Assembly: GCA_963971405.1 (NCBI GenBank)
Contig: OZ020487.1
Location: 41,079,039 to 41,143,038, forward strand
Source: Psococerastis gibbosa
Taxonomy: Eukaryota; Arthropoda; Insecta; Psocodea; Psocidae
Direction: 5' to 3'
DNA length: 64,000 nt
Below are positions 18,212-50,600 of the stretch, one piece after another. Under the pieces are notes generated by a model. It was not told the DNA's origin. It saw nothing but the letters and a program-made list of their open reading frames with translations, and did not search any database. Made by a program: the position numbers and the translations under genes. The first letter of the stretch is position 1, and each line of letters starts with the position of its first letter.

Positions 18212-18760
18212 GGCTAAGTCAGAGGTAGTTGGATGCTTCAAAGCTTACGAGGCTTTAGCGACAGCGCAATTTAGTGGTCACAGAATTTGTCGGCTGAGAT
18301 GTGACAATGGGTCTGAATATATAAATCAAGAAATGAAGGAGTTCACTAAATACCGAGGAATCAGAATAGAGACGACTGTACGATATACACCACAGCAGAA
18401 CGGTGTTGCAGAACGATTTAATCGTACTATAATTGAAAAGGCTCGATGTATGCTAATCGATAGTGGAGTCGACAAAGAGCTATGGGGAGAAGCTATGTGT
18501 ACGGCCTGTTATTTAATTAATAGGAGTCCTACTTGTGCTTTGAAGAAAATGACACCTGCGGAGGCATGGTACAGGCAGCTGTAGATGTTAATAAGCTGAG
18601 AGTTTTTGGATGTGCTGTTTTTCTGAAAGATCCATGTGTTACTGGCAAGCTTTCGTCAAGAACTATCAAGTGTGTTTTTATAGGGTACCAAGCAAATGGG
18701 TACAGGCTCCTTGACTTAAAGACACATAAGATTTTTGAGAGATGTCATATTTGACGAAAT
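18190..18760 (+). pseudogene. Copia integrase remainder, frameshifted
   Basis: This continues the integrase in two further frames: CDNGSEYINQEMKEF, then TPQQNGVAERFNRTI (core catalytic region) and LINRSPTCALKK. Frame changes occur near 18200, near 18570-18585 and near 18740, the last looking like loss of one GA from a GAGAGA run. The LRVFGCAVF...VFIGYQANGYR segment (about 18600-18710) is the usual integrase C-terminal region of copia elements. Confidence 0.88.
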
Positions 18761-26526: not shown

Positions 26527-26604
26527 TTAACGAGCGTGCAGCTTGCAGAAAGGTCTGCCTCCTTTTGCGAAGAAACTTTGACCTTCTAAGTTCTTCTTAC
26601 AAGT
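26527..26604 (-). CDS. Zasp52-like: Zasp-like last coding exon: end of LIM4 and stop
   Basis: Too short for ORF calling. ATTTCAG acceptor before 26604, phase 0, 25 codons and TAA at 26529-26527. It encodes TCKKNLEGQSFFAKGGRPFC then KLHAR, completing LIM4 with the usual FCKxHAR end of this family. The intron from 28018 to 26605 contains a SINE and a foldback MITE. Confidence 0.92.
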   Translation of the reverse strand, partial: TCKKNLEGQSFFAKGGRPFCKLHAR

Positions 26605-29600
26605 CTGAAATAAGAATGATAAAATATACCAATAGGAATAAGGTAGGCCTATCACTAAAAGGGAAATCTGTTAAATCATAACACAATATGACGTGTTAAT
26701 CGTGGAATGCAGGATTCATAATAAAATAACGGTATTTAGCTACTGCATCGGTGTGTGACCATGCGTTTACCAAAAAATTACTCATACACACGTATTTCAC
26801 GATTTTCTTGTCCTAAAACTGACAAACCAATTACTTCCGTAAATTTTTCGCCTATTGTATAAATTAACGATGATTATTCTAGGCTATTATTAGAAACCCT
26901 CAACATTATTATTAATTGGGGCAACTTCAACTAAGATCCTGACAACCGAAATCCGGCGGTCAAGTTATTGTCGCTATTTAGGCGCTCATTCCACCGACCA
27001 GCTAGGGCTATTTACAAAAACGGTGACGTGGTAGCAGACATTCAAGACTTAGGTGACGTTTCCATCGACCTCGCATTGCAGAATGCAAATGACATTGACG
27101 GAAATTTGAATTTTTCTTTTTATAGAAATCTATTAAAATGTTTGTACTTAACATATCCCATGACGCCATTTTTTAATTTTAGTTTGTTTGTTTGTGATTT
27201 TACTGTATGATCATTGATCAATTTTAACTATGGCATAGAGGAAAATAAACATTTCCGTCAATTCTGCAATACGAGGTCGGAGGAAACCCCACCTTAGTCT
27301 TGAATGTCTGCTACCACGTCACTGTTTTTGTAAATAGCCCTAGCCGGTCGATGGAATGCCCGGCTTAAGCTTATACATAGCTTTTTTGTTCCTATCATCA
27401 AACTCATTTTTTTGTGTACTTTAAACTGTGTTTTCGGCAAAGCTCGTCCACGTATCACGGCGAGCTCACATCGGCCCAGCAGCGAGATGAGAAGACCACA
27501 GTGAGTAACCTTAGAGTGATTCGCATATTCACTTAAATGGACAAGTATTGTCGGAGTTAGGGGGGGGGGGGGGAGCAAGATTTTTGCCCAAGCACAAGAA
27601 AGAATGAGCTTTTTCGACAAAATATATCAAATCGCACCCAGAATGTTGAATAAAAATAAAAAGGACTTTTTGTTCTATTACTAAGCCAACCTAGCGGGGT
27701 TAGGGCTATAAAGCCCTCTCTTACACTCAACTAGTAAGGCCCGGGACCGTCTGCTTTACATGCCCTCCGAAGCATGGCCAAAAAATGTAGGAAGTGTAGG
27801 ACTCAAATCAACAACCTTTCAGGTGAAAGTCAGAGTCCGTACCACTACTCTACACGTCTTGACGTTTTGAATTGTTGAGGTATACGTTTACACAACTTTT
27901 TTTTTGTATAGAATTGGGAATATATTGGAGTAATGTCTGACTGACAAGATAATAGATTAAATATAGTTTTTTTAAAATTTAACGAAAGCTATTTATGGCG
28001 TATTACTAATTATTTTACCGTGCAATTGAAGCACTGCGAGTGATAATTGTTGTTGAGGGCTTCCACCCATCGGTCGCCAGCTTCAATTGGGAATCCGCAA
28101 GCGAAGCATTTAGTAGTGAACAGCTCATTCCAGTCTGAAATTAACAAAACAAATGATAAAGGATAGTATGAAAGAATTGTTTGCAAACAGCGGACGTAAA
28201 AATTCAAGATAGGTACTCCAAGTAGCCAACTGCACAGATCTGAAGGAAATCACAAATTAACTGGCGAAACCATTATTTTTAAACAACGGGAATGCCTAAG
28301 GCTAATTGTTTTTTAAAGCTGAAATACGTTGGTTAAGTTACTAATCTAAATAATAATAGAAATAAATAATAATATACAATAAACTTTATTAATGTAACCG
28401 GTTTCGGTGAGATACCATCATCAGACTAACCTGATTAGCTCAATTTCTTTCAGAACGGCTTGTAGTTGCTGAACTTGTTTTTCAACGTGGTCAATAATAA
28501 TAATAATAATAATAAATCGTCTTTATTGAACAGCGTAGTTAGGGCCAGTGGCCCTTTCTTACACTAAACGGAATCATTAACTGTTAACCTGATTAGTTTA
28601 ATGATCGTATCTTACCGAAACGGGTTATATTTAATAAAATTTGTTGTGGATCTGTTGCGTCTTCAATTTTATATTTAGAAACACCCTGTCAGTCAACTCC
28701 CCTTTCCCCGAGGTGAACGAGTCTGCCCTTAGGGTGCCTCAAGTTAACTAACAGACTCACTCCCCCCGCCAGGCTGACAGGGTTGCTTAAAAAGCAGAAA
28801 TGCTGAAAGCAGGCGTTAGAAACAACATATTTAGAAACATGGACTTACCATTTTCGCAGTATGGCAGCCCATCTTCTAAGAAGAAAGCTGAATTTCCGAA
28901 AAGCTTGTTGCAGTAGGCGCAGACGAAGCACTCAGGGTGGAAGTGCTTCCCGATCGCGTTCAGACAGTCGCCTTTGATTTTCTGATTGCACTTGTCACAA
29001 TTTGGAGCAATATATTTCTCAAAGCAAAACTCGCAATAGAGATTACCCTGCTCTTCAACGAATCCTGAAATTGATTACTTCAAATTATAACATAAATTAC
29101 ATTTTACGACATGGCCAAACCTGTTCAGCGAGATACACTTTATTACAATGGGTAGGGAGGAACACTATTTTTTATTATTATTGAAATGGCCATGGATTAG
29201 GGAACTTACAAACCAGCAGCATTAAACGTAGAACGTATAGCCTGTTCACCTATTTTACGACTACAGGATGCACCCTTGTTCCACGTTCCCACGTTCCAAC
29301 CAACCACATATTTAGTTGACCTCTTATTTGAATATTTGGAGGGGTTTACAACCGCACGGTCGTCTTCTACCGTCGGCCAGAGAAAGACCGTGCGGTTATA
29401 TAAACCCTTCCCACGCTTCAGCTTGAGGGGGCACAGCTTGTAATTTTATGTCCACCTATTTTTGTTGTTGCGAAATACACGGGTTATCTGTCTATCTATC
29501 TAAGTAGTGTGAGGTCAATAATGGGGTTGTTTAGAGCGTGCAACAAGGTCACATCCAACGGACTATAAAAATTATTATGAAAACACCGCAATAATAATTT

Positions 29601-32600
29601 TATTGATAGTTTCCGTTAAAAAATGTCTACTTACCTATATCCGCGAGGGGACGACGGCACTGGGAAGTCGCGCAGATGAAATGGTCCGGACACCAAATCT
29701 TTCCCAAAGCGGTGATAAATGGGCCTCTGAAAATATATGCAACATCAATAAGAATGCAGTGCAATTAATTCAAAATCAAACTCAGTTGTTTTACCAATCT
29801 TATTTCTTATATTCCAATTCTTATATTTCATAGTTGCTGCCCCTTTATTATTTCCATCTCTCATTTATTTGTGTCCGTAACATGGCAACATGCGTCACAT
29901 TTGTCGTGAGACTTTTTCGGCGACTTTCTGGCCAAAATATGACCTCAAACCTTTAAGCTATATGACTCTGTCATAAACAAAAAAAAAACAAAAACTTAGA
30001 GTTAAAAAAAACTAGTTATAACAACCCGAATTAGTAAAACCCAAATAATCGTTAAGAAATTAACAACATTAACATTAACACAATCATCCCCTCTAATAGA
30101 TCTAGCTACTTAGTAGGTTAGGAATAGGTAACCAGCCACGCTCCCGCCCACCCCTTCCTCCCAGTCCTATATAAACCAAGGTTTCCTCTCCCTAGTCACA
30201 TTTGCATCTTCTCCTCGAGTTGAGCAAGTCTAAAATCGCAGATAAGGTGTAACTGTGCTAGTGGGTTTCCCTCTGTATATGGCAGTTCTTGCCGAAAGCG
30301 CTCAGGGTTTTATACTAACACAAGTGGGTTTCTTAGACAAAGTTAATTTCTTAACGATTATTTGGGTTTTACTAATTCGGTTTGTTATAACAAGTTTTTC
30401 TAAAACTCTAAGTTTTTGTTATTTTTTGTTTATTAAAATGAAATACCACGAAGTCACGAGTAATCTAATTATTTATGACTCTGTCATGAAATGTTTCTAC
30501 TGTTGATAAATAAGATGGTGTCACAATTTGTTGTATGGCAAGTCTTTTCATATTTTAGCGGGAAAGTCACCATAAACGTCGGACGACTATTATTAAGCAA
30601 CTACAATGCTTTGGTGAATACGCCTATTGAAATCTGGAGGACAATATAATTATTCCCCTGTATTAGGGCTTGGTAAACCACGGAAGCATAAACATTTACA
30701 GATATCAAATATTGTCAAAGGGATGGTCGAAGTATAAAGAAGTGACTATATGGACTTACTGAACGATTCGTTTTTCACACTTATTGCATATCCGTTTCGC
30801 GCTATCTTTAAGCTCAATTTCCTCCAGAACGCCGCGTAGATGCTGAACTTGTTTTTCAATGTGGTCAACGGAATCGTCAACTGTTAAATAATAGCAAAAC
30901 ATGCAAACAAACCACAAAACATAAATTAGTAAAAATGAATAATAATAATAATAATAATGAATATTATATGAAACGACAATAAAGCAATTTCCAAACAAAA
31001 CGGTAGGCTACTATTGTACTTTTTCCTGCACCAATAAAACCGAAAAGTCTGACGATTATTATCCATGGTTAGCATGCGGATAAAAATAAGGCTTCGGTCT
31101 GAAATAGTGAAGGAGAGCCACACTGTCGTCACAGTCAGTTAATTCAGTTGTTAGTAAATACAAAAAGACTCGGGAGCAAAATCAGTGACGTTTCAATAGC
31201 GAGATACAACATCAACGAAGCCAACGACACAACAGCATTATTAGTTAAAATTTCAATATCTACAGAAGGTTATGATTCAAAAGTTCACGACATTTTCAGC
31301 AGACACACAGGTACTTGAGTCCTCTACCTGACTTGGCCGTTGCATTGGGCGCAGAGAGGAACCCTCTGAGCATTGGGAGGATTGAGGACACCACGTCCAC
31401 GACGAGGGGCGGTCGCTCCAGCGAAAGCAGCTCCTTTACCAGCTCCTGGTCCACCTGCATCCGGCTTTGTATCAGCTGCGTTGCTATTGGGGGTTACGGT
31501 GTTTGTGGGTGCGGTAGGGGGGACTTGGCTGGGCTTACAAGGTACGGGCTTAATAGGGGAAACAACTTCCAATGGTTTAAAGGCAGACGCCGCGCTATTT
31601 GTCAGCGTCAGGCTAATTTTTCGCTCCAAACTACTTTGGAAAGCTTGAGGCGTCGAGAATGTCAGTTTTGGAGCTGTGATCTGAGACTGAGGTCCCTCTG
31701 TAATAGCGACAGGTGTTATCGGTTGAAAATGTGGTGTGGCAATTTTTCTTTGCGGGGTAGGCGTTCCAAAAGGTCGGGGGGCAATGATGGGGTCATGTTT
31801 TGGAGCAGGATATGCGTTTTTCCCCGCCAGACTAGTTTTTGGGCCGACTGGAGTAGTCGGTGCTGCTGCCGGCGTATTTGAAGTCCGCCTAGCTTCTATT
31901 TCGTTTTTCTTGGCCTGTTCCTCTTGAGCAGTGATCATGGCCTTTACGCTTCCACGTCTTGGTAAATCGAACGAATTATTTTCGTATGTATCTTGCTGCT
32001 GAATCTCTACAGAATTTATTGTTGACACTTGCTGTTGAGTAAATGTATTTATTGAGCTCTTTGAATCTTGAGTTGTTCCCGCATTGGGAATAGAGCTCCT
32101 ACTGGCGGCTCCAATATTTCTAACCGACTGTTCTCCTTGTTGATTTATTATTGTTTTTACATTAGATTGCGATGTAACATTTGGAACCTGAGTAATTGGT
32201 TGAGCTGATGGTTCCTCTTTAGGAGGCCACGATACCCTTTTTTCACTCTTTGGCTGAACCCTCCAACTAGGCAAAGGCTGTTGGTAAGATTCAGTCGTTT
32301 TCACCATATGAGGCAAAGGGACTGGCGATGTAGATCTATAAACGGCGGTTCCAGGTGCTTTAAGGTTGGACACCTGAGGGATTGTTGCCTGGGGGCCAGA
32401 ATAGCTGGCAAATTGAGATTTCGGCACGGAAATGGGTCTAGGCGACGCAGATCGATAGACTTGGTCCTGGTTATAGGTTGGAAGATTTCTATTACGTACC
32501 TCTGGGATTTGAGGTTTAGGATTATAGTCAATTTTTGGAATTGGCACTGGAGTTCGCGAACGGAAAGCTAAAGGCACATGGGAAGGCTCTGGCTTCGTAA

Positions 32601-35600
32601 CTTTTCCTCCTATAGCTGATCGAGGCCTTGGTATGAAATCTTTAGCGTCGATTCGGCCTGCCTGGGTAGCAGGAGGCAGGGGCTCTGGAACATTTTCAGA
32701 AAGTGAACTCTGGTAGGCAGGAAGCGCCGTAGGTTTTTGGAGGCCTGAAGAAGCAACCGACTGGAAATTTGAAGCTGATGCTGCAGAGCTCTTGCAAACC
32801 ACATTTTCTGAACTGGTTCTTTTAAGACCACTAATTGGATCAACCCCCCCTATAACTCGTACTTGGGTGAACTCTTTTCGAGAATGCTCTGCTACTTCTA
32901 CCACACTCCTTTTCGTCGTTTTTGTAACATTCCCTATTTGCTGCACTTGCTCAGTCTTAGTAGCACTTTTCTCTGAGCTATCTTGTTGTCTTAGAGAAGA
33001 GTATTCTCTTTGAAGTTGTTGAGTAACTGGCGGGAATCCAGGAACAGCCTGAGGGACTTCGGAATCATTTCTGCTTATTTTTTGTAATTCTAATGAGCTT
33101 GACGACTTCTCCTCTTTCCTTTCATATGAGCCCGTAATGCCATCTCCTACGATCACACCTGCTTCAGCTCCTGTTGACTTCTTTTCTTCGACAACTCCAG
33201 TAACTCCAACTTTGTCAATTACAGATTTATTGAGCTGCAGGTCTTTAACTTGATAGGTGGGTTTTATTCGTATTTCATTTGGAGGTGGACTGGGAAATGA
33301 AACTTTTTCAGCTGCCTCCAAGGATTTAGTGAGAGCAACAGCACTGCCACCGTAAACGAGAGTGGCTTGCGGCTTCTTCGCTTCAACAAATGGACTGTAA
33401 TTGCTTTCTGGTGCAATAGTTAAAGCTTCTACCATTGAAATCGGTTTTATAAGCGGCTTGCCATCAGATATTGGCAGTTCACGTTTCAAGTCAACAGCAG
33501 ATCCAAATTTTGCCTGACTTGCTATCAACTCTGCTCTTTTATCAGCCGGGGGCGGTGGCGCATATGAAATTTCATGAGAAGAAGGAAGCAACCCGAACGC
33601 AGCATCGACGGTATCCCTTCTTTTTGATGTTGAAGTTGCAGATTGTTGGGTTACAAATTGTGAAATTGCTGTTTCTTGGGATTTTAACTCACCTGTAAAT
33701 GCTGTTTGGATCTGCGAGCCTCTCAACATTTGGTAAGGCGTCCTTTGCACGTTAACACCAGGGAACCCTGAACTACGTCTACGTGCCCCATCGTACTTTG
33801 GAAATTCCGAATCAACTTCCGTTCTAGGCTCAGAAATAGGGTCTGCAGATAGAGGCTCGGTGGGCTCCAACTCAAATGGCTGTAATGGCTCTGGGGCATT
33901 AATGACAGGTTCTGATTGTAAATTAGAAGGTTCTTGTAAAACAGGCAGAGAGACTGATGCAGTAGGTAGTGTTGGAAGAGGGGAGTAAGGCCGATCAGGA
34001 GCTATAGTAAGAGCTTCCAGAAATGATGTTGGCCGAGGCAAATTTGATCCGAGACTAATTTTCTGTGGGACCTGTTGTTCTAATTGATGTCTTTGATATA
34101 AGTTTTCTTCATACGTCTTTTTAGTAGAGCATTGCAAGTCGGGAATAGTTGTCAGCGCTTGAACAAATTGGGATTGATAAGGTTCTGGCTTAGGAGTCCA
34201 CATAGGGGCGGGGGTTTTACCGTAATTATTTACACCAACAGTGCAAGGCGATTTAGTTCGCTGCTCAACATCTCTGCGAAACAGTGATTTCTGTTGCTCT
34301 GGAAGGTGCTTCAACGTGGTTAACTCCGAAATATTTTCAAATTCATAGTTTATTCCGCTGATGTTCTGAAAGAATAAGGCTTTTTCTGACTCATTTATGG
34401 ATTGATTCTCTGGTACTGGTTGCCCAATGCGAGACCTAGGTCTGTCTGCAGCTTGAATAACTTTATCAAAAGATTCATAAATATGTTTTGTTCTTTCAGT
34501 TGCGTCGTGGTGCCTTTCTTCATCTTCAAGTTCAGCTACGGGTGTTTTAGATCGTTCAAAAGCAGGTTGTGGAGCACCGAGACGCTCTTGTTTCTTGAGA
34601 AATCGCTCATTAGAAAATAATTCTTGATGAACTTGTTTCCTTTGCTCCTTGACTTGTTGCATTAGGGACTGCTTTTTAAGATCATTAGGTTGGTCTTGAG
34701 GACCTATCGAGGAAGGAGGTTGTTTCGTTTCCGATAAGGAATAATTACTTTCAAGACTAACCGAAGGCAGTGTAGGCCTTTTAATTTCTGATTGAGGCAG
34801 GTTTGTGCTAGCAGGCTGAATGGAAACTGATTGATTGGACTGACTGATTTCCGCGCAGCTGGGCAAAGAAGGCTCCGGAGCTGTTTTCTGTGGGGCGTAG
34901 GGTTTCGCAGACCCTAAATTTCTTAAATCGGGAAGCTTGAATACTTTTGGTTCCGGTTTTCCAGTTGCCTTTTTCAAATCGAACTCAAATTGAATGCCTT
35001 GAATATTTTTTAACATTAAATGGACTTCAGCGCCTGGGATAGACCCCGGATAAGGACTTACGGCTCGTCCAGGCGTACAAGGTCTGGCTGATTTTTGTAA
35101 CGTTTCTTGAGCACCTCGTTGGAGCTCCTCGTCTTCCTCTTCTTCCTGTACCAAGTGCTCGTAAGTATGAAAGATATGCTCTGTTTTCTTTGACATATCT
35201 TCGTGACGTTCATGAGCTTCAAAATCGGCAACTGGAGTTCGGGCCCTTTCCCGGTGATGATCAATTGATAGAAATTGGCTTGCTTGATTGTTTTTGGGTG
35301 CCTCAAAGGATTTAATTTCATCTGAAAATAGTTTTTCTTCTTTACATGTTTGATTTTCTTCCACACGTTTGATTTCTTTGGAGTTCCGTGAGTAGTCCGA
35401 TGAATTTTCTTTTAATGTTCTCTGATTTTCTTGGTATTTTATTTGATCTTCCGATTTTTTTCTTTCGACTTCTTCCTGTCTCCTAACAGTCTCTCTCAGG
35501 TTCCTAAGGTCACTTTCTTGAACTTGAAGTGACTGACGGCGAATTTCCTCCTCCTCTAAAAACCTGACCTTCTTCTTATTCTCTATTTCTTTCTGTATTT

Positions 35601-38600
35601 CTTCCTTCTCTAAAATTTGGTTTTGTGCGTTAATGATTAACCCTTCGATCTCTTTAATCTGAGTTTGATCAACAGACATACGTTTCTTGACGCCTAATCT
35701 TTTAATTTGCTCATACTGTTCTTGAATCTCCACCTGCTGCTGCTCGTATAATTGTTCCAACTCTACAACTGGCGTTGAGTGACTTCGAAGAAAAGCAAGA
35801 CCTGTTTCCTTATACTTTTGCTGTTGACCTTCAGACGTTTGGTAATTCTTCCAAGCTTGTTCTTGCTCAATTTTCTGAAGATTTTCTTCTTTGCTTACTT
35901 CACAATCGACAACTCTTTTAACTACCTCGTCGGCTGGAGTAGGGCTTGGACACCTCTCTTGTACTTCTAATATTTCAGATAATTGTTGTACCATGTTCTG
36001 TGTGTCCTTATGGAGTGTAGCAACCTCTTCTGAACAAATCGACATTTTCTTTTGACTACTACGGGACACTTCCTGACTAGAAAAACTTTGTGATGATTGT
36101 TCTAAATGTGAACTGCTCAGACCGGAACTCTCAAAACTGACATTCTTACTTTCTGACACGTTATATGATGATTGAGAAACGGTGGAGAAACTTTGGTAAT
36201 GTATTCCATCGGTTGTTTGATTGAGTGCTACATCTATGGTTAGTCGCAGGACAACACGCAGTTATTGAATTAAACAGGGAGGTCGGGTTAGGAAAGAAAA
36301 GAGAAGCAGAGAAATTAGCCAAAGCTATAAGCGAAAGCAGTTCAGCAATAACAATTAATGTATTTACATGTGCTAAGCTAGTCTAAATGGTTTTAATTTG
36401 CACACTGCTCTCAAGAGAATTTACTCTGTACAAAAGTTACCCTAATTTCAACAGAAGGCTGGAATTGAGAAATTCGGTATCCTAAGTTAATCTCAACTCC
36501 ATTCCATACCTAACTATATATTTCAATTATTGCATAAAGAACTGCAATATTTTTAAGTCATCATTTTTCAAAATTTTGCAGCAGAACAGATGCAAATTAA
36601 AGATAACGGGTCAAGCTTTGTCAATAAGCATTATGGAAGTGAAATTTTATTCCTAAACTTAGTGTTCGATTTGATCAATATGCTTAACTGCTGCTTATTA
36701 TCGTTAGTTATGGTAATTAGTTTATTAACTTATGGTATTGGCTAAACTGTAAAGCCATCAGCAATACGACATGCTGGGTTTGCCTCTGCATGTACCTTGA
36801 TTTGTCAATCTACATTACAACCACAAATACAATTTTGAATATTTTATTTATACCGTATTAGTTATTAAAATTATTAGTGTTCAGTCCAAGCTGCTAAAAA
36901 TTAGTAAGGTTGGGATACGACAGTACCACTTTTAGTAGCCAATATATAACTTAGTGACTCCATGCTACCAGTTATTTATATTTCTATGCCAACAAAATAC
37001 GGTTAAGTTTATTGTCCTAATTCTAATAAGGACCGTAGGCCTACTGAACTAGGCAATTTATTATTATTGCGGATGTGGACAATATTATTTGTATAATTGT
37101 ACAGTACGTAATGCTACTTGTCCAGGGAATACTGGGCGAGGAAAAGAAAGAAAGGCGCCCATTCCACCGACCAGCTAGGGCTATTTACATAAACAGTGAC
37201 GTGGTAGCAGACATTCAAGACTTAGGTGGCGTTTCCACCGACCTCGCATTGCAGAATTGACGGAAATGTTTATTTTCCTCTATGCCATAGTTAAAATTGA
37301 TCAATCATCATACAGTAAAATCACAAACAAACTAAAATTAAAAAAATGGCGTCATGGTATATGTAAAGTACAAACATTTTAATAGATTTCTATAAAAAGA
37401 AAAATTCAAATTTCCGTCAATGTCATTTGGATTCTGCAATGAGAGGTCGGTGGAAACGCCACCTAAGTCTTGAATGTCTGCTACCACGTCACCGTTTTTG
37501 TAAATAGCCCTAGCCGGTCGATGGAATGGGCGCCAAAGAGAGAGGTCACAATGCAAGTGGCCTAAAAAAATGCAGAAATCTGACGAGTTTGTTTAATTTG
37601 GTTACGCTCGCCTAAAGGGGGCAATCATATTTTTGTATGCTGTTTCATGCTGCTTCCTCAGAAAAATTCTGTATATACATCAAGATGAGCTCATATTTTT
37701 AAAGTTATAGTTATAAAGGAAATGGCCAGTAAAGTTAAAAGGTCACATGCAAAAAAAAATAGCAAATCAAATCGAACACCTTTCAATAAATTAAAAATAA
37801 ATCATACTTGTATAAATAGGCACTAAAATTAGGGCGTAACGATGTTCTAACCTACAATATTCTAGTATTCGGTAAAGCTGCCATTTTAATTCATTTTAGA
37901 GCGATAGCAAAATTCCATAATCCTTCAATAATGAACAATGTTTAACAATCCTGCATATATTAAAAACAGTACCTATATATAAATACAACAGCAGCATTAT
38001 AACATAAGACTGCAATAAACACAATCGATCACAATTCACAGGCAATTTACTGGTTCCACTCAAGGACGACGGATCCAGCCCATAATAGGGGGGGGGGGGG
38101 GTGTAGAATACGACTTACTAATATTTTTTTTTTTTTTGAGGGGGGTGGCAGCTACTACCTGTATCCGTCCTTGGTGCCACTTCACTATTCTGCACTATTT
38201 TGGGATGCGCAATGCTGCTTGATACGGAACTAGCCTCACAAAAAACCGACAAATTGAAATTTTGTAAATATAAAAACTACTTGACATATTACATTTGTGG
38301 AAGGATTATAGATTGTGAGTTAGAGCCTGCTTCGAGAGCTGCTTTAAAGATCTTCTAAATTATAATTATTGTAAAGCTATAAAATACGGTCTAGGTTTCG
38401 TGTTAAACGTTTTGTAATCTGAAATAAAAGAATAAAAATATTTACGACATTAAAAAAATCTACAATATATGTAGTCTATGTACAATAATCACTGAAAGAG
38501 AGTAAATTTAATTTCAAACAATCGTCCAACTTAAAATTTAGGTAAAACGCTCAAATATTTTTTTTTACGTTTGTTTTTTTGAGGCAGAGCGACTGAGGAC

Positions 38601-41600
38601 GATTTTGATATTTTAAATGTACTTTGAAGCAGCTCTCACAGTGCGCTATCGACAACACCTAAAACAACTTTACCTCGAAGTCCTGCCCCGGTTCTAAGTC
38701 CTCCGAAAATTCCTTAAACCCAATACCATGTTTTAAATATTTATCTATTCACCGGACCTAAACCCAAAGTCAGGGCAAATTTAAAATTTTATGTAACCCT
38801 TTTGAATGATAACGACAACAGTGATATCATATTTGAAAAAAAATATATATACTAAAACAGGAAGCAGTCAATATATATAGGAGAAAATTTGAACAAGTGA
38901 ACAAAATGGCATTCATAATAAGGGGACAGAAGAATCCGGGCCAATAGGCCGTGGTCGATATGAAAGTAGGCTTCCAAACGTTTCGTCAACAACTGCGGTC
39001 GACATCTTCCGTGACACTACGTACACGTACACTTCTAAAATTATATCGGATTATATAAGATTAGCCCGGATTCTTCTGTCCCCTTATTAGACTCCGGCCG
39101 TGAAGGCCTTCGTTATTATAAAATGACATTCTTTTTTAGTGGTCTTTTACATGGCAGCTTTGTAAGCATTCTATGTGACTGTCACATTAACTGCACTTGC
39201 GTCACTTTGAACTCAAAATTATTACAGCGAAGACAAAGAAGATTGAAATAGAGATAAACATAGACCTAACCCACCCGATAACAAAGAATAGTTATGACTG
39301 GTTGTTCCTGGTTAAGATGTTGTAAAATTGACCTCTACTGTTAAATCAATTTTTTGCATTTAAAATAACCCCCTGAATAACATATCCGCTGCATTTCGAA
39401 TTAACACAGTACGGTAGGCTGTATCGAAAAACACCAGCTTTAGTTTGAGTGACTAATAAATAGCCTCTTTCCTCTTATTAGCCTTATTTGTTATTTTCTG
39501 CTGCTTCCTGATGCGTAATCATATGTTAACAGATTCTAGGGTCTTAGATTTTGTATTGAGGGACACTTCCACTTGTTGAATACTTAAATTGCTTCACACT
39601 GCTGACGGTTACTCCATCGTGGTTACATGGGCATCGGTAAATGTGGTGTGAATAGTCAATTGCGACCACAGCTCACCAGCCCGGATATTTTTAAAACACC
39701 AATTGGCCCCGGACGCGAAAGCCTTTGCTGTTATTTCAGGTCAAATGATGTTTTTCGACGTACTCTACCGTATGAACTACAGTATTAGAAATGCAGCGGT
39801 GAATCCCATAAAAGCCGCAAAAAGAAATTGGTAATTAACCGTTACCTGAGAGGGGGCGTGGCACAGCTGGAGCAGCTCCCAGGTTCAGCTTAGGAGCCTG
39901 GAAGGTCGAGGGCTGCAGTGGTGCGTAGGTCGGTGCTGGTGCGGGGGCGAAAGTCTGCGAGGGGGCAGGTGCGTAGGTCGGTGCTGATATCTGCGACGGT
40001 GGTGGAGCATACGATGGGGCAGCCGTAGGTGCCTGAATAAGATTCAACATACCAAAATACGAGTGTAATAACAATATCAATATTTCAAAGATATTAAACT
40101 GGGAGAAAAAAAATCCTTGCTTTAGACGTTTTAAGAGGATGTGGACCGTAGATATTGGTGACCCCTGGATTAATTTTACATTTAAATTACTACGTAAGCT
40201 ATAAAGATAGAGTTGCCTATTTTCAAATGGGTCTCCGTTTAACCTTACTTATCGGTTGGGCTCGAAATCCGATTCCCTCTAAATTCCTTATCTCCCTTGG
40301 CCTTAACTCGTAATTAATATGTGGGAGCCATATTTGTTATTGTTGGCACGTGATCACAATGGCGGACACTGATTGGCTGAGGTGGAGGTAGCACGTTTTG
40401 ATCTGATTTGATGAAGGAAGAGATGGGGATAGATTTTCTTAAAAATATAGGTCTAACCATATATATTATAGTATTCTGTGGGTCTAACTTTAGAGGAGCA
40501 TTTAAAAAGGGATTTTTTTTTACGCCTGTGTTATGTCTATCTACAGGCTTTTAAACAAGGAATCCTATCCAATCAAAAACTGATATTCGAAAAAAAGGAG
40601 ATAGACCCATTTGAAAATAGGCAACTCACATGGTCTATGATGGAAGTTGTAGTGGACTACTTCATACACAATATCATAGGATATTTTTTAATTATTGGTG
40701 TTGTAATTATTCAATGAACTTAACGGAGGACTAGAGCCAGGATAAGCGAAAAACACAGGCTTTTCTGTGCAGGACCCTCTTTTATCCTAGGGCTGAGAAA
40801 TTGGCCTTGATGGCGGAGGAACTCAATGAAGAGTCAAATGCATAAAGATGCAGAAGGCAACGGGAAACAACTGCATTACTATCCCCTAGTTGGCCTCGTA
40901 CAATCATCATGACATCAATGGCCATGATGATGAAGAGGCACTCAAAGAAGAAGCCATGCAATTGCAACTTAAAACTGCAGGGTGTAAGGGATAAGAGTAT
41001 TCTTACCACAAGACACACAGTAATATTATACAATAGCTTCATTTATTCATAAACTAAGATATATAAAACCATAGCTACAAATAAGCATCGCGGAGCGCTT
41101 ACTTCTTTAAGCAGCCATAAGCAAACATGCTCCAAATATCAGCCACTACTTAACAGTTTGACAGCCTCAGTTAAACATCTAAATAGGCCTGCATAAAATT
41201 GAAAGCAAGAAAACACTATGACCAAAGATTCAAGTTAACATCAATTATAAATAAATTCTCTCTGCCCGTGTCTGTTGTTGTTTTTTCGCCGCAGCGGAGC
41301 CGTGCCAGGACACGACAAGTTCAACTACAACGCTGGAGTGGGGGGAATGATAGTCAAGCAGCCAAGGACGGATTGAAGTAAGCAAGTCCTTTTCTACTTT
41401 ATGTCGCTCCCATTTGTTTTAATATGTATTGGCGTATTATATACCGAGTTTGACTGGGCCTGCGTTTGGTGGGCGTGGCTGACTGCAACAAGTAACTTAA
41501 GCAACATTACCGTGACAAGGACGATAAAAGCGAAAAGCATTTAACTTAGGTCCCCAATTACATCACGATACAAAGAAAAAAAATTAGATCATGCCCTAAT

Positions 41601-44600
41601 TAATTCTACATAAATCTGTTTAGCCATTCATTTCTACGTACACTACAAAAATGCAACAGCAAAACTTGAAAGGAAAACAAATAGGCCTACTAAAGCGTCA
41701 GAAATAGTTGTTCAGAGACTTCACCCGGTTTTTCTGGCAAGTTTACGGTCCTTTTTTGTATGGAGGAATGGAATGCCAAGAATTTTTATGCGCTAAAAAA
41801 TTAAAACAACGAGCAAATTGTAGGCTTGTAGGCACTAATAGGGAGAAGAAGACCCATTAAAGGAGTTAGACATTGAAGGTTAGGTAGGTGCCCATTCATT
41901 TTGGGTTATAATTTCAACGTATCTGATAAAGTACTATAGTATATATATATATATTATACTGTATAAATATAGTACTATAGTTTAATTATATTAAAAATAA
42001 AGCATGTTGCGTAGAATAAGCTACAAGGACTTGAGTGCAGTAAGGGGCTATATGTAAATATCAAAGTCACCCATTGAAAGGACAAAAAGTCTCTGAACAT
42101 TTCGTGTTATATCGCCCCAAACACGCAGCTTATAAGGTATACCTGACTAAGGAAAGGTGCACTACGAGGTGCGCTCACGTGGCGTATTCCAGACTGAGCA
42201 GCCTTAAACGAGAAAAAAGCCTGCCGTAATCTTCAGTGGGAATTAAAACTCATAGATATTAACTAAGCTACACTAAATTATTAAAAGCATTATAAATAAG
42301 CAATGGAATTGGCAGAAATCATCAATTAAATTTTCATCACGAGTGCTCCTTTAACTGGTGTTCAAATACATCAAATAACAAACAATTATTTATGTAATTT
42401 CGCCACCATTAGTCCGATGAACATTAAACTCATTATTAATTTATAATTATATTATTATGAAACAAGATACATACTGTATATGTTAATATTCGTATTTTGA
42501 TTTTTCAAATAAGTTTTAAATTAGACAAGATTCTTCACATTGAAACTAAACTAATGATGATTGGATTGTTAATTGCAGGGAACCGACCTTGTTGTTTACT
42601 TGTTTCACAAGACTAAGGCTGCACGTATCTTGCACAAGGATTAACTTATTGTGTGTATGTACCTTATGCTTACACTATGCTAAAGCCAGTTTTGCTAATT
42701 TTTATACTCAGATAAACCAGAAGTTTAATCGACGGTAAGACTTACATGGAACGGTAGCGGAGCCAGGGTCCCTGGTAGAGGAGATCCTGGACCTGCTCCC
42801 GGAGACTGGACAGCAGGTTGAAAGGGAGGCAATGACGAAGGCACAGATCCAAGGGCTGAGCCAATAATAGAAGATGGCGGTTTAACTCCCCTGGAAAACA
42901 ATAATTTAATACATTTTCAGCCATTTTGTTTTGTAAGAAACATAGTGGTTACGTGTATTTCAAAAATTGGGCTATGTGAAAACACGTCCCTCTCTTTGTT
43001 TTGTTAATTTAGATTATTAGTATACGATATAACTGAGTGGTATAGAATAGATCAAATCAAACTGCATCAAGCTGTTCTCTTTTGGCTTTCTGTAGTTTAC
43101 GCCTACGCTGTTAAATAGTCTGGGAGCAGGGCTGCCTTTATTTGATTTATTACTACAAATAAGTGAGCGAACCAAGAGCGAGTATGAGAATTTATGAGTG
43201 ATCTTACAGTCATAGTCAAATTTTCTACTTAAAAGTAATTAATTAAGGAAAACTTACGGGGGAATTGTAATAGGATCTAGGTTCGGAGCTGGCGGATTTT
43301 GTCTCGCCACGAGTTTTGCATGAACATCGCAGTACAGCTTATTACTGATGTTGTAGTAGCCGACATTTTTCAATGACTGACCACATGTCGCACATTTAAA
43401 GCATTCTACGTGCAAATTCTTATCCTTGATCCGAACAAAAAGACCACTAGAATAAAGAAAAAATACGAAAATTAATTGCAACAGCAAATATACGCTAATT
43501 GAATCAAAATACATTATATGGATAAATTATTACTATGTCTTCAAATACAGGCATGTAATTACAGTAGTAAGGTATAGGGACTATAATACGTGTATTATAC
43601 CTGTCATTAAAAAAATAAATGACAAAAATGACTTCACAATTTTCAAATATGGAAACACCCCTTTTCTTTCAATGTTTATTTCACAATTTCAGTGCATTCC
43701 CCATCTACGCGTATTTTCATATGTTAATAATATGATTTAATCAAGCAAAATATCTATTGTGATTTTTTTGCCTTCTACAAATTGTTAGGGTTAATTGGTT
43801 TAGACTTAGGTCGTTATTAATGAAGACTGTTATTTACTCCAAATTCAAATTACGAGAAGTTCTTAATACAGTATAATCCTAATTTGATTCGATGCAGTAC
43901 TTTCTAAAATGAAGTAGGCCTAGTTTCTAAAAGCAGGAAAAAAGTTTCTACGTAAATTCTCATTTGTTTAATAATGGGAAGATACAGTACATGCTATTAA
44001 ATATGGGTACTGGCTGACTAGGAACTGAAAGTAACTAGCCAATGTTTTCGTTCAAATACATGAATGTGTACATTGAACATCGACTCTGATGGCAAGATAG
44101 TGTTTATAATTGTGCTAGTCTCTACAAGCCATGCAATCGGAGACGTGTCGTAACTACTGTTATATGTTATGCATATGCATAAGTATATGCTGTGTTATAT
44201 TTGCATTTGAACACTATAACAACGGTTTTACAATAGCAATATATATTGTAGGTACAACAAAACTTCACGAAGTACCAATTACCATGCTCTTTTCAGAAGA
44301 TGTGGATTACATTGCAATACGGTACCTACCTGAAAGCTTTTTTTTGGGGGGGGGGGGGGGAGTAGAGTAAAATTTGCCAAAAATCAATAAATTAAGCATG
44401 GTTCTTTGAAAATTCTTGTGCAATTTCTGAAGAAGTCTATTTCTTAAATACAGACATTTTCAATAACATACATATTTAGTACAATCCACACCCTCTTGGA
44501 AGCGTAAGGTAAAAGAAACACTCAAAACCACAAAGTAACCATGCAGTTCAAGCATACACATTGCGACGGTGCCTCCAGTTCACTATAGATGTCGGGACAT

Positions 44601-47600
44601 GCAAGTCGGAGAAAAGGAGTAATAACAAGTGATGCCGAAGTCATTAGAACAAAAGATCAAAGGATAGACAGGAGTAAAGTAGATGTGATTGGGAATCTTA
44701 CACTATGAAACGATCACAATCTGAACACTTTGGGGTGTCCGAACTAACTGCTGGTCCTGACGGCGTCGATTGAGGTTGTGATTGGGAAGGGTGAGAGGAT
44801 CCCTGCGGTGTGATTGGACGAGGAGTTGTGTCTCGTCCTCCAATAGCGTGGCTGATCGTCGAATAATAGGACTGTAAGCTAGTAGGCGCTGCACAAGCAA
44901 AAAAACCAACACTCCCAATTTTTCCTCATAAAAAATAAAGAAAACATTTCCCATGATCTGAGGATGTTACAAGTTTTGTGAATAGTGGGTAATGCCAAAG
45001 TAGCCAGTAGCTAGGTTAATTAAGTCATTAAAAATTTTTATTATCAAAACGTCAAAGACTGACAAGCCTACTTCGTAACTGCGTATATAACATTATCTTA
45101 TTATATTATTAATGAAATTCACAGTTAAGAGTTTGAGCATATGTCAATGACCAAAGATTAACATTATCCAGCCATTGCGTTGGTAGTCTTATCCTTAGGC
45201 ACTTAGATCTTGATACCGAAAGAACTGCGGTGGCTGCTGTGAGTTATGATTCACCCACTAATCACTAAACCTGACGACAACTTAAACAACGTCATTAAGT
45301 CATTCACGTCCACAATCTTATCTACAGACAATTTAATTAATAATTTAGAGACTAATTATTGACATTGGATTAAGAGCATATCGGAGCACCCCCACTACTT
45401 TTGTACATAGTCAATTTTTATCAGAAATATCGATCGTTGAGTCATCAAAAATATCCGTTATATTGGCAGAAATGCTCCTCAACATGCTGATATATTCAAT
45501 AACACCTAGTTCTTGAACTCCTTCCCCAGGACTACCACACCAATTGTTATTTTTACAAATCAAATTAAATAGTTGGAACCTCGTCCGTGTTAGGAAGAGG
45601 TACCATATATTTGTTTAAAAACAATTCTTCTGCTCTGATGTTATTGATAGCTTTACGATTGACATGTCATGAGCTATTAGATTTTCACACTAATAAGGCT
45701 TTTCCCCCTCCGATTGTCTCTTAATGATAAACTGTGCACTTAAATTTTGTAATATATGCGCTTTGTAACAAGCTACTAATAAAAGGTAAATTTAATGAGT
45801 AAGTTGTTTAAATTATCAATATTAAAATCTTCAGATCGAAGCCAATTTACAGCGTCAACAGCATGAAAGCGGAAACCATGGCCATGGGTGCCATCGACTT
45901 ACACTATGAGCCTCTCACAATCTGCACAAACATTTTGACCAGGAGGCAAAATCTTCAACGGATCTTGAGGCGCATCCAGTTTGGTCTCAGGGGCAGACAC
46001 GTGCCTCAAACCAGCTAGAGGATTGGTAACCGGTGCAGATGATACTTTTGGTGTGTTGGGAGCGGATACTGCAGCTGGTACTGTTGCTAAAAACTTTATC
46101 GGTTAAAAACTTTCTAAAGCTATGATTCATTGATTTCATAATTAAATATGCATTCGGAATAAGAGCATCACTGTAGTTCCTTTTTTTTGTAAAGTCAGCA
46201 TGGGTAGCTAAGTAGATAAAATAGGTAACTAGGCAAGGTTACATTAGTGTCGGTCGTATATGCCCAATAACCAATACGTAGGTGAGAGCGTGGATTTCGG
46301 TATATTTGGACCGTTTAACAATATATCGCAATGAGCCCTAACTGCTAATGGGTATCACGTTCGAATAGCCCACAACGGCCACGGTTTTTAAAGAAACCCT
46401 CTGAAAATCAGCTACCTTCATTAATTATCATGAACCATGAATTATTTTGTCCGTAGCTTCGTTCATATTGAGCTATAGCCAGGTAGTCACACTGCAAACA
46501 CATGTCGTACCCAGATTTAAATAGGGCCATAACCCTTACGAAATCGCTAATGAATGATGCTATTGAAATCTCGTTGCAATGTGTTCGCTCCCTATTTCCT
46601 TGTTTAAATGTATATTACTGAGCGGACGTTTTTTGATAAAGGTTGCCCCTTAAATTTATCCAACATTTCTCTACTAAGACCAACCTGGTTCAGGTTCCCT
46701 GGGCTCATTGTCGATCTCCTGGACCATTTTAAGAACTTCACTGTTGGCAGCATTATATGTTTTTTCGTTCTTCATGAAATTTACACTGCAAAAATGAAAC
46801 AATTATGTTCAATTTACACTAAATAAATACTTATTGAATGTAAGGTAATTGCAATTGGGCTTCATTTTCGTGATATGTCCATTGTAATTTGTACTTAGTC
46901 TGAATCTTGCAACGGCCGCAAGCATGTTTTTATTTATTTATCTACATGACACACTTACCCTAATACGCCACCAGCGAGGACTTCAGTCTGCGCACTAAGA
47001 GTCTCAGCAATATTTTCCTCGGAGTACATTTGGATGGGGGAATTGTAGACTTTGTTGGCCAAATTCTTAGTGGCGTCACCATTCAGCTGTTGTCCGCCGA
47101 ACGGTTTAGCCGCCACGTTGTGCTGTGAGCCCACAGCCGGGGCTGGTGCCTGTTTATACGCCAGTGACGTCTTTGTCACAGGTTGAATGTTGCTGGAGTT
47201 CTGGATGGATGGAGAGGGACCGACTGGCGTGACGGACGGCTTCCACGTTGAGCCTCCTCTGCAAATTCAAGACCAGCAATAACGTACCGTATCACTTGAA
47301 ACAAATTTGAAGATTAATTTTCATTTGGAAAACGGGCTTTTCAGGTTGAGTGAGGCCAATTAACAGCCCTAGACTTTTGATATCGATTGAGCTAGAAGCC
47401 ATGTACTATGAAGTAAGGAGATTTTAATTTTGATTAAAGATTTGATAAATGGAAACTCGTAATGATGCCTAATAATATGATGTCTAACATGGCGGCATGA
47501 TTTGGGGGCCATATTCCAAATGTTTGATACTTCTTCACTGAAATTGGCTATCACTTGACAACCTGCAGCCTGATCATGGCGATTTTAATCCCGGGGTTAA

Positions 47601-50600
47601 TTTAATACCATGTCACGTGATGGGGATAATTCAATTGTTTAAAATAAAAGACAAGCTAGTTTCAGATTTTTGTAATTTTTGATGCTGGTAATCGTCGCAG
47701 TGCTAAGCGCGGAAAATTCAAATTTAAACAATTGCATTATCTTGAGCTATATTTTTGGTGGGTTTCTTCATTTTTTCTGCATTAGATTTAGACAAATTAT
47801 TTATAATCATTAATACATTAATTCAAAATATTAAAACTTGTTTATTTCTAGGGCGATGTGTGTTTATATTTGCTATTTATATTTCTACGGCAGCGTCGCG
47901 TCAGCTCAGTTGTTTAGCATTGCCATTTAAAAATTCTGAAATTTGCTTTTCCTTTATTTTAAACAATTGAATTAACCCCATCCCGTGACATGGTATTAAA
48001 TTAACCTCGGGATTATAATCGCCATGATCAGGCTGCTGAAGGAGGTATTAACAAGGTAGATAGGGAAGAAAAACCTTCCAAGCTAGGCTGTCACATCTAA
48101 TACTATAATACATGGTTTCATCAACACATCAGTACATACCTTTGTATAGTGAGTTCAAAGCTATTACCAGCTCTGACTAGGGCATTTTGTGCGTCTTTAT
48201 GAGATAAGTTGTACAAATCAACATTATTAACTTTGATAAGCGAATCTCCCGCCTGGAGCCCAGCCTTTTCCGCAAGTGAATTTCCGTTCACCTGGAAAGA
48301 AGAAAATTACATGAATCAGTTAGATAGCATATAAAAAGCAGCGAGAACAAGCAAACTGCCAGGAATAGTTAAGAGACAATCTGAGGAGGAAAAGACTTAA
48401 TAAGTGTAAACATCCAATATCTCATCTCATATCAATCGTAGAACAGTCAAAAATATCAGGACAAACAAAAGACATTTTTCTGAGCATTTTGATTTAAGAT
48501 ATATGTATGTGCCTCTCGAATACAGATTGGCCACAATTATTGAATTTGATTTGTACAAAATACGTTTGGTGTGGTAGACCCGAGGATGGAGTTCAAGAAC
48601 TATGGTCAATTGGCTTTAGTGAAGGCTACATGTCATATGTCAAAATGTAGAGGAGCATTTCTGCTAATGAAACGGTTATTTTTGATGGCTCTACAATCGA
48701 TATTTCCTGTCAAAATCTACTTTGAACATAAAAGCGTAGTGGGAGTACTCGTTTGTTCTTAAGAAACAGCTATTGGTCCCTCGTCCAATGCCAACGACCC
48801 CATGGATTTTAGAAATGTTTGCTTTACTAGTTATACGTTAACATATAGGAAAAGCTTTGTGATGGCCGAAATGTTCGATTTCGAGATTTCAATTGATTTA
48901 CACGTTTTTAGAAAACAAAAAATATTTTTTTACGGAATGTTTGTAAATGGATTTCTGGGCAAACTACTCGATGGAAATTCGAGAAGTCATATCTCAGGAC
49001 TATTTTTTTCTATTTTGGGCTAACTCAATTTGTGTCTTGGTTAGGCTAGCAATGTCAATAGAATTTTAGAATATTTTGATATCATGTTTAATCCTGTCAT
49101 TGTCCAATCACTAAGTTGCAGAAACTCTTAAGCCATTATGTAATGTCACCAGATAGGCTAACGATTATTTATTAGCCATTTTATCATAAATTAATCTTCC
49201 GTAAAAGGCTACCTTAGACCTACCTCTTATCTCGAATCTTAATACATGCAAATCTAGGGATTTACAAGTGATCCCGGCTGAAAACATTCAACATTAATGT
49301 AAAATGCTCAAACCCTACTATTTTGCACCCATATTTTCTTAATGCTCCCCCTCAGCCCTGATGGGGAGACTCCGGACCTCTGCCCTGTTATCCGAGAAAT
49401 GCTACTGTTCATAATTAATCAATTGCTTGGGGTAGAGGAACCAATTTTCCCTTGGCCAAGGACCCAGTTGCTAGCTGAAATCCTGGCTTCGCCCTTGAAA
49501 TTAGTGCATTCTAATATACACCTAATGTAAGCAACTACATGGGTAATCATTCGGTCGTGCCCATAAATCACTTACCCCGGGGCCCTTAAAGACTCACTGC
49601 GGCTCTGATGAGGTGTAGAGGTGTAGCCAAACTGTCTGCTATTCGTCTTCGATTAGCCTGCTGCCGTACATCGTAATGTGATGGGAATGAAGCAACACAA
49701 CGTGGTTCACTTGGGTGCTTCTGTTTTTAAAGTGCGTCAAAGATAGCGGGGAGTGTGTAACATCAATAGTTGGCAAGCGTTTCTATTGGAATAGTCCGGT
49801 AGTGAGCAATCTCTCGTTAAATAGCATCCCTCGTTACATAATGCTCATTTCGTAAATAGCCTCACACACTCGAGGTTGCATGAGTGATGAAAGGTGAAAT
49901 GTGAATGGGACACAACGGCTGATGCTGGCGCTTGGAGTTAGTGCCAAAAGCTGTTATGTTTTCATATCGGGGGTCTCTTTTCCTTCAATAATGCATCCGC
50001 GGTTATGTACGTAGCCAATACATGCCTATGGTACATGGTATAGTAACCTGTTAAACAAACATCTGCCTGCCCATCCGACGCTACAGCTTGGAGTGAGCCT
50101 TCCCGCGCCACCTCTTTCCAGACATCACGGTCCCTCGTCCTGCTCTACCTCCACCTCAGGTTGTTCTATACCAAGTCCCCGACGAGAAGTAGGGCAGAAG
50201 TTAAAATCAACATTTGGCCAACAGAGAGCAAAGGAAACGGAAACTAACATACTTCTAACACACTTCGGCCATATGATGAAGAACGAAAACTATCGCTTTC
50301 TGCATGTAATAATGAAAGGGAAGGTAGAAGGGCAGAGGGTTCCCAACAGAAGAACATCCTGGTTGAGAAACCTGTGGCAGTGGTTCGGCAAGAGCAAGAC
50401 TTCCCTTTTCAGAGCAGCATTCTCCAAGGTCCAAACTGCCATAATGGTCGCCTATCTAGAAGAGGCATTAAAAGATGAAGAAGAATAACAAAGGTAATTG
50501 TATTATACGACAGTCCTCCGTCAAAAATAGAGAATAAATAACCCATGAAACAAGTACATACATGTAATTCTTGCCAGGGTAACCCTCAGCAGTGTGAAGC

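What the first reader, a model, noticed from the sequence alone, without database searches (positions are those of the whole stretch)
30760..36233. Second switch: a 4.9-kb exon or a 121-nt exon both rebuild LIM2
The giant exon ends VPLCAQCNGQV-R and the short exon ends RICNKCEKRIV-Q. Each completes LIM2 when joined to 29726. Phases (1 in, 2 out) match, so the frame forces one or the other. The result would be a 2256-aa form with a long disordered, repeat-rich region or a 661-aa form with a short coiled coil in its place. With the LIM1 switch this gives four isoforms that keep PDZ, ZM and all four LIM domains. I know of large disordered exons in insect Zasp52 but not of this exact arrangement.
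Basis: partly seen in the sequence, partly recalled or inferred. Interest (0 to 1): 0.85.

Follow-up and report, generated by a model that had tools for sequence, protein, structure and literature searches.

The report
Zasp52 alternative LIM2 exon pair
An insect muscle gene (Zasp52) appears able to complete its second LIM domain with either a 4.9-kb exon or a 121-base exon; the sequence supports this, but the same kind of switch is already known from fruit flies and is predicted in other insects.

Summary
The minus-strand gene is an insect Zasp52 (PDZ, ZM, four LIM domains), probably from Psocodea (it groups with the louse Menopon). The 4906-nt exon (36233-31328) and the 121-nt exon (30880-30760) are both phase 1 in, 2 out; each opens LIM2's first zinc pair and joins 40032-39846 to 29726-29635 in frame. 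Using both or neither brings stops. The short exon is not chance: a splice-and-motif scan of both strands with GTRAG donors finds only it and the two LIM1 heads. It has the LIM2b spacing C-x2-C-x6-GPF and aligns with a Halyomorpha LIM2b head (0 of 2000 shuffles as good); the giant exon has the LIM2a spacing x5. The arrangement is not new: in Drosophila LIM2A and LIM2B are named splice isoforms, and an exon-16 knockdown whose target translates to the LIM2a zinc pair was designed to spare only an exon-17 long isoform. What remains is lineage detail: linker and LIM2a head fused in one exon, a heptad helix in the short exon, and a partial copy of the short exon between inverted repeats 2.2 kb downstream. 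No transcript data were available.

The parts
31328..36233 (-). giant exon (4906 nt): low-complexity linker of about 1600 aa followed by the LIM2a head (C-x2-C-x5-GPF)
   Evidence: open, phase 1 in / 2 out; LIM2a profile hit E 8.2e-16; three ORFs of unnamed source 50-52% identical that run into LIM2a in one ORF
30760..30880 (-). short exon (121 nt): heptad helix and LIM2b head (C-x2-C-x6-GPF)
   Evidence: splice sites and phases; one of 3 strict scan hits, 0/2000 shuffles vs Halyomorpha LIM2b; top hit of LIM2b profile, E 0.0084
39846..40032 (-). common upstream exon, ends in phase 1
29635..29726 (-). common downstream exon: rest of LIM2 (GPFITALGKIWCPDHF...)
   Evidence: Pfam LIM with either head, 42.6 and 42.5 bits
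28849..29064 (-). end of LIM2 and LIM3
28019..28134 (-). LIM4, first part
26527..26604 (-). LIM4, last part, stop codon
45903..46086 (-). LIM1a head exon
   Evidence: its acceptor scores low (-3.3)
44702..44888 (-). LIM1b head exon (first switch)
   Evidence: a second type of LIM1 head also in termites and others
43258..43446 (-). rest of LIM1
46959..47258 (-). exon with the ZM motif (PF15936)
56836..56940 (-). first coding exon, start of PDZ (PWGFRL)
48140..48291 (-). second PDZ exon
42143..42202 (-). possible 60-nt in-frame exon (AAQSGIRHVSAPRSAPFLSQ)
   Evidence: acceptor scores 1.1
28376..28647 (-). partial, interrupted copy of the short exon (28587-28567 and 28494-28437) between 62-63-bp inverted repeats; lacks the zinc pair

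Best explanation
This is the LIM2a/LIM2b alternative splice of an insect Zasp52 gene, probably from Psocodea. The spliceosome joins 39846 either to the giant exon, giving a long Z-disc isoform with about 1600 residues of low-complexity linker that carries a motif conserved in long insect Zasp proteins and then the LIM2a head, or to the 121-nt exon, giving a short isoform whose linker is replaced by an about 25-residue amphipathic helix and the LIM2b head. The reading frame removes double-included and double-skipped products. Shown here: exon anatomy, phases, likeness of both heads to those of other insects, presence of the pair in predicted isoforms of other insects. Inferred: that both junctions are made in this species; that the choice is muscle-type or stage regulated by Bruno/CELF, Rbfox and Muscleblind factors as in Drosophila; that LIM2a and LIM2b forms both bind ZM domains, so the choice mainly sets linker length, partner motifs and perhaps self-association rather than the number of LIM domains.
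For: All four isoforms in frame, double or zero inclusion broken. PDZ, DUF4749/ZM and 4 LIM stretches. A 681-aa search gave 1197 hits (120 listed), the best Menopon gallinae at 68% identity over the whole query; window + Menopon support 0.998 among 42 sequences. LIM2 head spacing over the 241 proteins held (the window's own giant ORF P0001 among them): x5 in 193, x6 in 38, not recognised in 10; of the 121 over 1200 aa 109 x5, 4 x6, 8 not recognised. 15 of 17 hand-picked species have both heads. The LIM2b profile ranks the short exon first of 2848 window fragments (E 0.0084; next 0.62), the LIM2a profile the giant exon (E 8.2e-16; next 0.87). Short exon vs Halyomorpha LIM2b: 0 of 2000 shuffles as good. 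The pattern A[LM][TCVSM]x[AIV]P[DEN] (as in ALTIAPDRPYSP) occurs in 99 of 121 proteins over 1200 aa (P0001 included) and 0 of 94 of at most 800 aa. Literature: LIM2A/LIM2B are splice isoforms (PMC6910826, passages, one section); both bind OGDH (PMC10323237, passages); [quoted passage not shown] Zasp52 among genes with mutually exclusive exons, which exons not stated in the passages (PMC3303723). The two alternative exons have the longest AG-free stretches before their acceptors, 125 and 89 nt of 15 (next 79 twice).
Against: No transcript of this species was available. The short exon alone found no protein relative (2 candidates, none at E <= 10), so its membership rests on position, phase, spacing, a modest profile hit and a 31-column alignment. 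Its helix part alone is weak (53 of 2000 shuffles as good as the real match to Halyomorpha). The giant exon's acceptor is poor (-8.1). Four of 121 long proteins carry the x6 head (all four also hold an RGRG piece of a LIM2a-type head), and 22 of the 121 lack the linker motif. Most relatives are gene predictions, not sequenced transcripts.
Confidence: 0.85

Rival explanations
1. The choice is three-way: besides giant+LIM2a and LIM2b, an internal 3' splice site near the end of the giant exon makes a short LIM2a form without the linker, as other insects do.
For: 76 of the 92 proteins under 800 aa with a recognised head carry LIM2a without the giant region, among them the nearest named relative, Menopon P0002, 665 aa. 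Drosophila Bru1 promotes an alternative 3' splice site that makes a shorter version (exon 14) of Zasp52 exon 15 (PMC8742874, passages); I could not verify that this is the giant exon. 13 in-frame AGs lie in the last 400 nt, e.g. first base 31697 or 31454.
Against: Those 13 score at most 3.0, and the position matching other insects' short LIM2a form, 31454, scores -1.8, while 12 of the 15 modelled acceptors score 4.4 or more. Higher-scoring in-frame AGs (7.6 at 34451, 5.4 at 34445) would keep most of the linker. ORFs P0122-P0124 also show linker and LIM2a fused.
Confidence: 0.35
2. The short exon is a relic: splice sites remain but it is not included, and this species uses only the giant (and perhaps an internal) LIM2a form.
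For: No close protein relative. The nearby copy differs in 6 of 22 compared codons, all changing the residue, so that comparison shows no purifying selection. A mobile-element-like inverted repeat lies between it and 29726.
Against: Zinc pair, spacing, both phases and a GTAAGT donor are intact, while the nearby copy is interrupted and has no zinc pair.
Confidence: 0.1
3. The giant exon belongs to a separate transcript with its own promoter (a LIM-only type isoform such as Drosophila Zasp52-PQ), not a splice partner of 39846.
For: Weak acceptor at 36233; LIM-only isoforms exist in fly (PMC5081203, passages).
Against: The acceptor phase fits 39846. In the list the hits other than P0122, P0123, P0124 and P0127 show PDZ or ZM together with LIM domains in chains of 1251-2461 aa, i.e. 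predicted proteins that join both ends; their linkers match the window's only in short stretches.
Confidence: 0.07

Closest known systems
Drosophila melanogaster Zasp52 LIM2A/LIM2B splice isoforms (exon 16 versus exon 17, numbering of Katzemich 2011)
   Same: Exon 16 holds the first zinc pair of LIM2 (shRNA target translates CNSCNVQ; CAQCNGQ here); one alternative exon was expected to escape that shRNA (PMC3591300, passages); a downstream primer reads GPFITAL (PMC3315501); LIM2A and LIM2B both tested in yeast two-hybrid (PMC6910826, section read).
Halyomorpha halys Zasp isoforms P0133 (1746 aa, LIM2a) and P0012 (654 aa, LIM2b)
   Same: Same long/short pairing with the same two head spacings; short head aligns to the window's over 31 columns, 0/2000 shuffles.
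   Different: The helix part alone is only weakly alike (53/2000); exon structure not seen.
Vertebrate ZASP/Cypher/LDB3 (Enigma family)
   Same: N-terminal PDZ, ZM motif, LIM domains, alternative splicing (PMC5081203 and PMC9751615, passages).
   Different: Three C-terminal LIM domains; a LIM2-head switch of this kind was not tested or looked for there.

Membership tests
Insect Zasp52 (Alp/Enigma family) | N-terminal PDZ with PWGFRL motif | tested here: met
   SRFDSQPWGFRLQGG in 56940-56836; Pfam PDZ 1.4e-15; motif named in PMC5081203
Insect Zasp52 (Alp/Enigma family) | ZM motif (PF15936) | tested here: met
   DUF4749 6.3e-14, residues 154-218; PF15936 given as the ZM domain in PMC6910826
Insect Zasp52 (Alp/Enigma family) | four LIM domains | tested here: met
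   4 LIM stretches, 2.3e-44
Insect Zasp52 (Alp/Enigma family) | grouping with insect Zasp proteins in a tree | tested here: met
   window with Menopon, support 0.998; deeper nodes are poorly supported or implausible (next node joins mayflies, 0.862; then 0.099), and no outgroup gene family was included
LIM2a/LIM2b alternative heads | two exons, same phases, each completing LIM2 | tested here: met
   (42.6 and 42.5 bits)
LIM2a/LIM2b alternative heads | LIM2a x5 and LIM2b x6 spacing to GPF | tested here: met
LIM2a/LIM2b alternative heads | sequence likeness of the short exon to other LIM2b heads | tested here: met
   profile E 0.0084; shuffles as good out of 2000: Halyomorpha 0, lgn10 0, Helicoverpa 0, Cloeon 6, Cryptotermes 10, Bacillus 23, Frankliniella 45; the lgn10 match covers 9 residues round the zinc pair only; no hit when searched alone
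LIM2a/LIM2b alternative heads | mutually exclusive use in transcripts | not testable with these tools
   no RNA data; the frame makes double or zero inclusion non-productive
LIM2a/LIM2b alternative heads | muscle-type regulation by Bru1, Rbfox1, Mbl | not testable with these tools
   motifs only: one TGCATG (11 on this strand in 64 kb) and one TGTTTG (28) within 60 nt before the short exon; one TGTTTG also before 28134

The most novel reading that the evidence does not exclude
In this lineage the linker and the LIM2a head sit in one exon, so a single splice choice sets two things at once that other insects can set separately: LIM2 type, and whether Zasp52 carries a long motif-bearing linker or a short self-associating helix. 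The short exon would be a tether-or-dimerise switch for Z-disc growth, and a mobile element has traded sequence with it.
Probability: 0.15. Interest if true: 0.45.

Novelty: new member of a known kind. Interest (0 to 1): 0.25.

Why it matters
The balance of Zasp isoforms sets Z-disc and myofibril diameter in flies (PMC6910826). A second axis of choice, which LIM2 head and with or without the giant linker, shows up in predicted isoforms from mayflies to midges, and the passages I read say little about what it does. A gene with linker and LIM2a head fused in one exon gives a comparative case.

Tried and rejected
Copies of the short exon elsewhere in the genome and the organism's name from its assembly: not obtained (genome search did not complete). 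The short exon alone as a protein query: no relatives. The giant ORF as a domain protein: no Pfam family. Disorder of the giant exon: mixed, 5 of 9 blocks disordered, so I write low-complexity rather than disordered. Exonisation of the short exon from a mobile element: considered because the copy at 28587-28437 fills the space between inverted repeats, but no repeat arms were found at the real exon; capture of the exon by the element is as likely; left open. A structure model of Halyomorpha P0012 from 14 sequences is poor overall (pLDDT 48.6, pTM 0.24); it shows a helix at 454-471 (pLDDT below 50) before LIM2 (10-residue blocks of 58-83); weak support only. Katzemich 2011 and Chechenova 2013 (Z(210), an adult Zasp52 isoform) are not held; both seen only in reference lists. 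Paper searches; no paper on this switch in Psocodea appeared in their listings, which cover only the held library.
Full report
What is there. The minus strand carries a Zasp52 gene from an ATG at 56940 to a stop at 26527. I placed 16 exons, 15 of them with AG acceptors and all internal ends with GT donors: PDZ in 56940-56836 and 48291-48140, ZM in 47258-46959, two alternative LIM1 heads (46086-45903, 44888-44702), the common LIM1 remainder, a possible 60-nt exon, 40032-39846, then the giant (36233-31328) or short (30880-30760) exon, then the LIM2 remainder to LIM4. Pfam finds PDZ, DUF4749 (the ZM motif) and four LIM domains. Either LIM2 head with the common exons scores as LIM, 42.6 and 42.5 bits.

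The switch. All four combinations are open. Giant then short gives 18 stops, short then giant 136, neither 4.

Chance. A scan for an open 60-400-nt exon, phase 1 in and 2 out, ending C-x2-C-x5 or x6 before a GTRAG donor finds three places on both strands: LIM1a, LIM1b and the short exon. With any GT the minus strand gives four and the plus strand one. In the 10,118-nt interval between the flanking exons there are 1 (strict) and 2 (any GT); order-2 Markov sequences give 0.01 and 0.14 on average over 100.

Relatives. Of 1197 proteins with E <= 0.001 (120 listed; only the 7982 candidates sharing most words were scored) the best is from Menopon gallinae, 68% identical over the whole query. A tree of 42 sequences, 41 of them chosen by me, puts the window with it at 0.998; deeper nodes are not credible (mayflies next, 0.862; then 0.099). 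So Psocodea rests on one named relative. A second search with the long form gave 384 (120 listed). Over the 241 proteins held, the window's own ORF P0001 included, the LIM2 head has spacing x5 in 193, x6 in 38 and was not recognised in 10. The giant exon has x5, the short exon x6. A LIM2b profile from 34 heads ranks the short exon first of 2848 window fragments at E 0.0084, the next being 0.62; a LIM2a profile from 110 heads finds the giant exon at 8.2e-16, the next being 0.87. The short exon aligns with the Halyomorpha LIM2b head over 31 columns better than any of 2000 shuffles; lgn10 and Helicoverpa also 0, Cloeon 6, Cryptotermes 10, Bacillus 23, Frankliniella 45 of 2000; its helix part alone against Halyomorpha 53 of 2000. 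Searched alone it found nothing. Fifteen of 17 hand-picked species have both heads; Apis cerana had LIM2a and an unrecognised head, Thrips palmi only one protein in the set.

Short LIM2a forms. Of the 94 proteins under 800 aa 76 have x5, 16 x6 and 2 no recognised head. So many insects are predicted to make a short LIM2a form, Menopon among them (P0002). Here the LIM2a head is part of the giant exon, and the in-frame AGs near its end score low (best 3.0; 31454 -1.8). A three-way choice is therefore possible but not well marked in the sequence.

Giant exon. Three ORFs of unnamed source align with it at 50-52% (two from about residue 70-90 to the end, one from 535 to the end) and hold the LIM2a head in the same ORF; a fourth matches at 42-46% and stops before it. 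Two of them read on past the LIM2a end, so I take them as genomic. Named long insect proteins match mainly near the LIM2a end and in short pieces. The pattern A[LM][TCVSM]x[AIV]P[DEN], chosen after seeing repeats like ALTIAPDRPYSP in the window, occurs in 99 of 121 long proteins (P0001 included, with three, at ORF residues 702, 750 and 946) and 0 of 94 short ones; shuffled sequences of 60 long proteins gave none.

How it may work. The helix in the short exon has hydrophobic residues at 5, 8, 12, 15, 19 and 22 of the exon, a 3-4 heptad pattern (sequence). In Drosophila, LIM domains bind ZM domains and multi-LIM isoforms grow the Z-disc (PMC6910826, passages, one section); LIM2a and LIM2b both bind OGDH (PMC10323237, passages). 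So both forms here should count as growing isoforms; the choice changes linker and partner motifs (inference). Regulation in fly: Bru1 and Rbfox1 act on Zasp52 exon 14/15 (PMC8742874, passages; PMC11081514, passages) and Mbl on exons between 12 and 17 (PMC3315501, passages, one section). Before the short exon lie one TGCATG and one TGTTTG within 60 nt, and the short and giant exons have the two longest AG-free stretches of the 15 acceptors, 125 and 89 nt; a repeat adds to the former. I looked at these after the fact, so they are leads only.

Prior knowledge. LIM1A, LIM1B, LIM2A and LIM2B are splice isoforms in fly (PMC6910826). [quoted passage not shown] its target translates CNSCNVQ, the counterpart of CAQCNGQ here. 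Zasp52 is listed with mutually exclusive exons, the passages not saying which (PMC3303723). So the arrangement is known; this is a new member with some lineage features.

A side finding. Between the LIM3 and LIM4 exons a partial copy of the short exon (28587-28567, 90%, E 0.010; 28494-28437, 88%, E 9e-16) is split by an insert and sits between 62-63-bp inverted repeats, 81% alike. Over the 22 codons compared it differs in 6, all changing the residue, and keeps the hydrophobic positions apart from one I to V change. Its origin is open.

Noticed in passing
28647-28376 (-): Partial copy of the short LIM2b exon between 62-63-bp inverted repeats, interrupted by an insert; no zinc pair; captured by or source of a mobile element, unresolved.
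   Followed up: partly
26978-27366 and 37152-37537: Two copies of a roughly 390-bp repeat, itself palindromic, in inverted orientation, 93-94% complementary, flanking the giant-to-LIM4 region; could pair in the pre-mRNA.
   Followed up: no
29973-30433: Mobile-element-like inverted repeat (92-nt arms, 85%) in the intron between the short exon and 29726.
   Followed up: no
16679-20393 (+): Copia-type LTR retrotransposon pieces (gag, weak integrase, RVT_2) by Pfam.
   Followed up: partly
giant exon, residues 702, 750, 946 of ORF 36261-31324 (-): Repeated ALTIAPDRPYSP-like motif, conserved in long insect Zasp proteins; function unknown.
   Followed up: partly
36233/36227 (-): Giant exon start has two AGs six bases apart, both in phase, with a pyrimidine stretch well upstream.
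   Followed up: partly
46086/46080 (-): LIM1a exon start also has two AGs six bases apart, both in phase (TTTAG CAACAG TACC), and a low acceptor score of -3.3.
   Followed up: no
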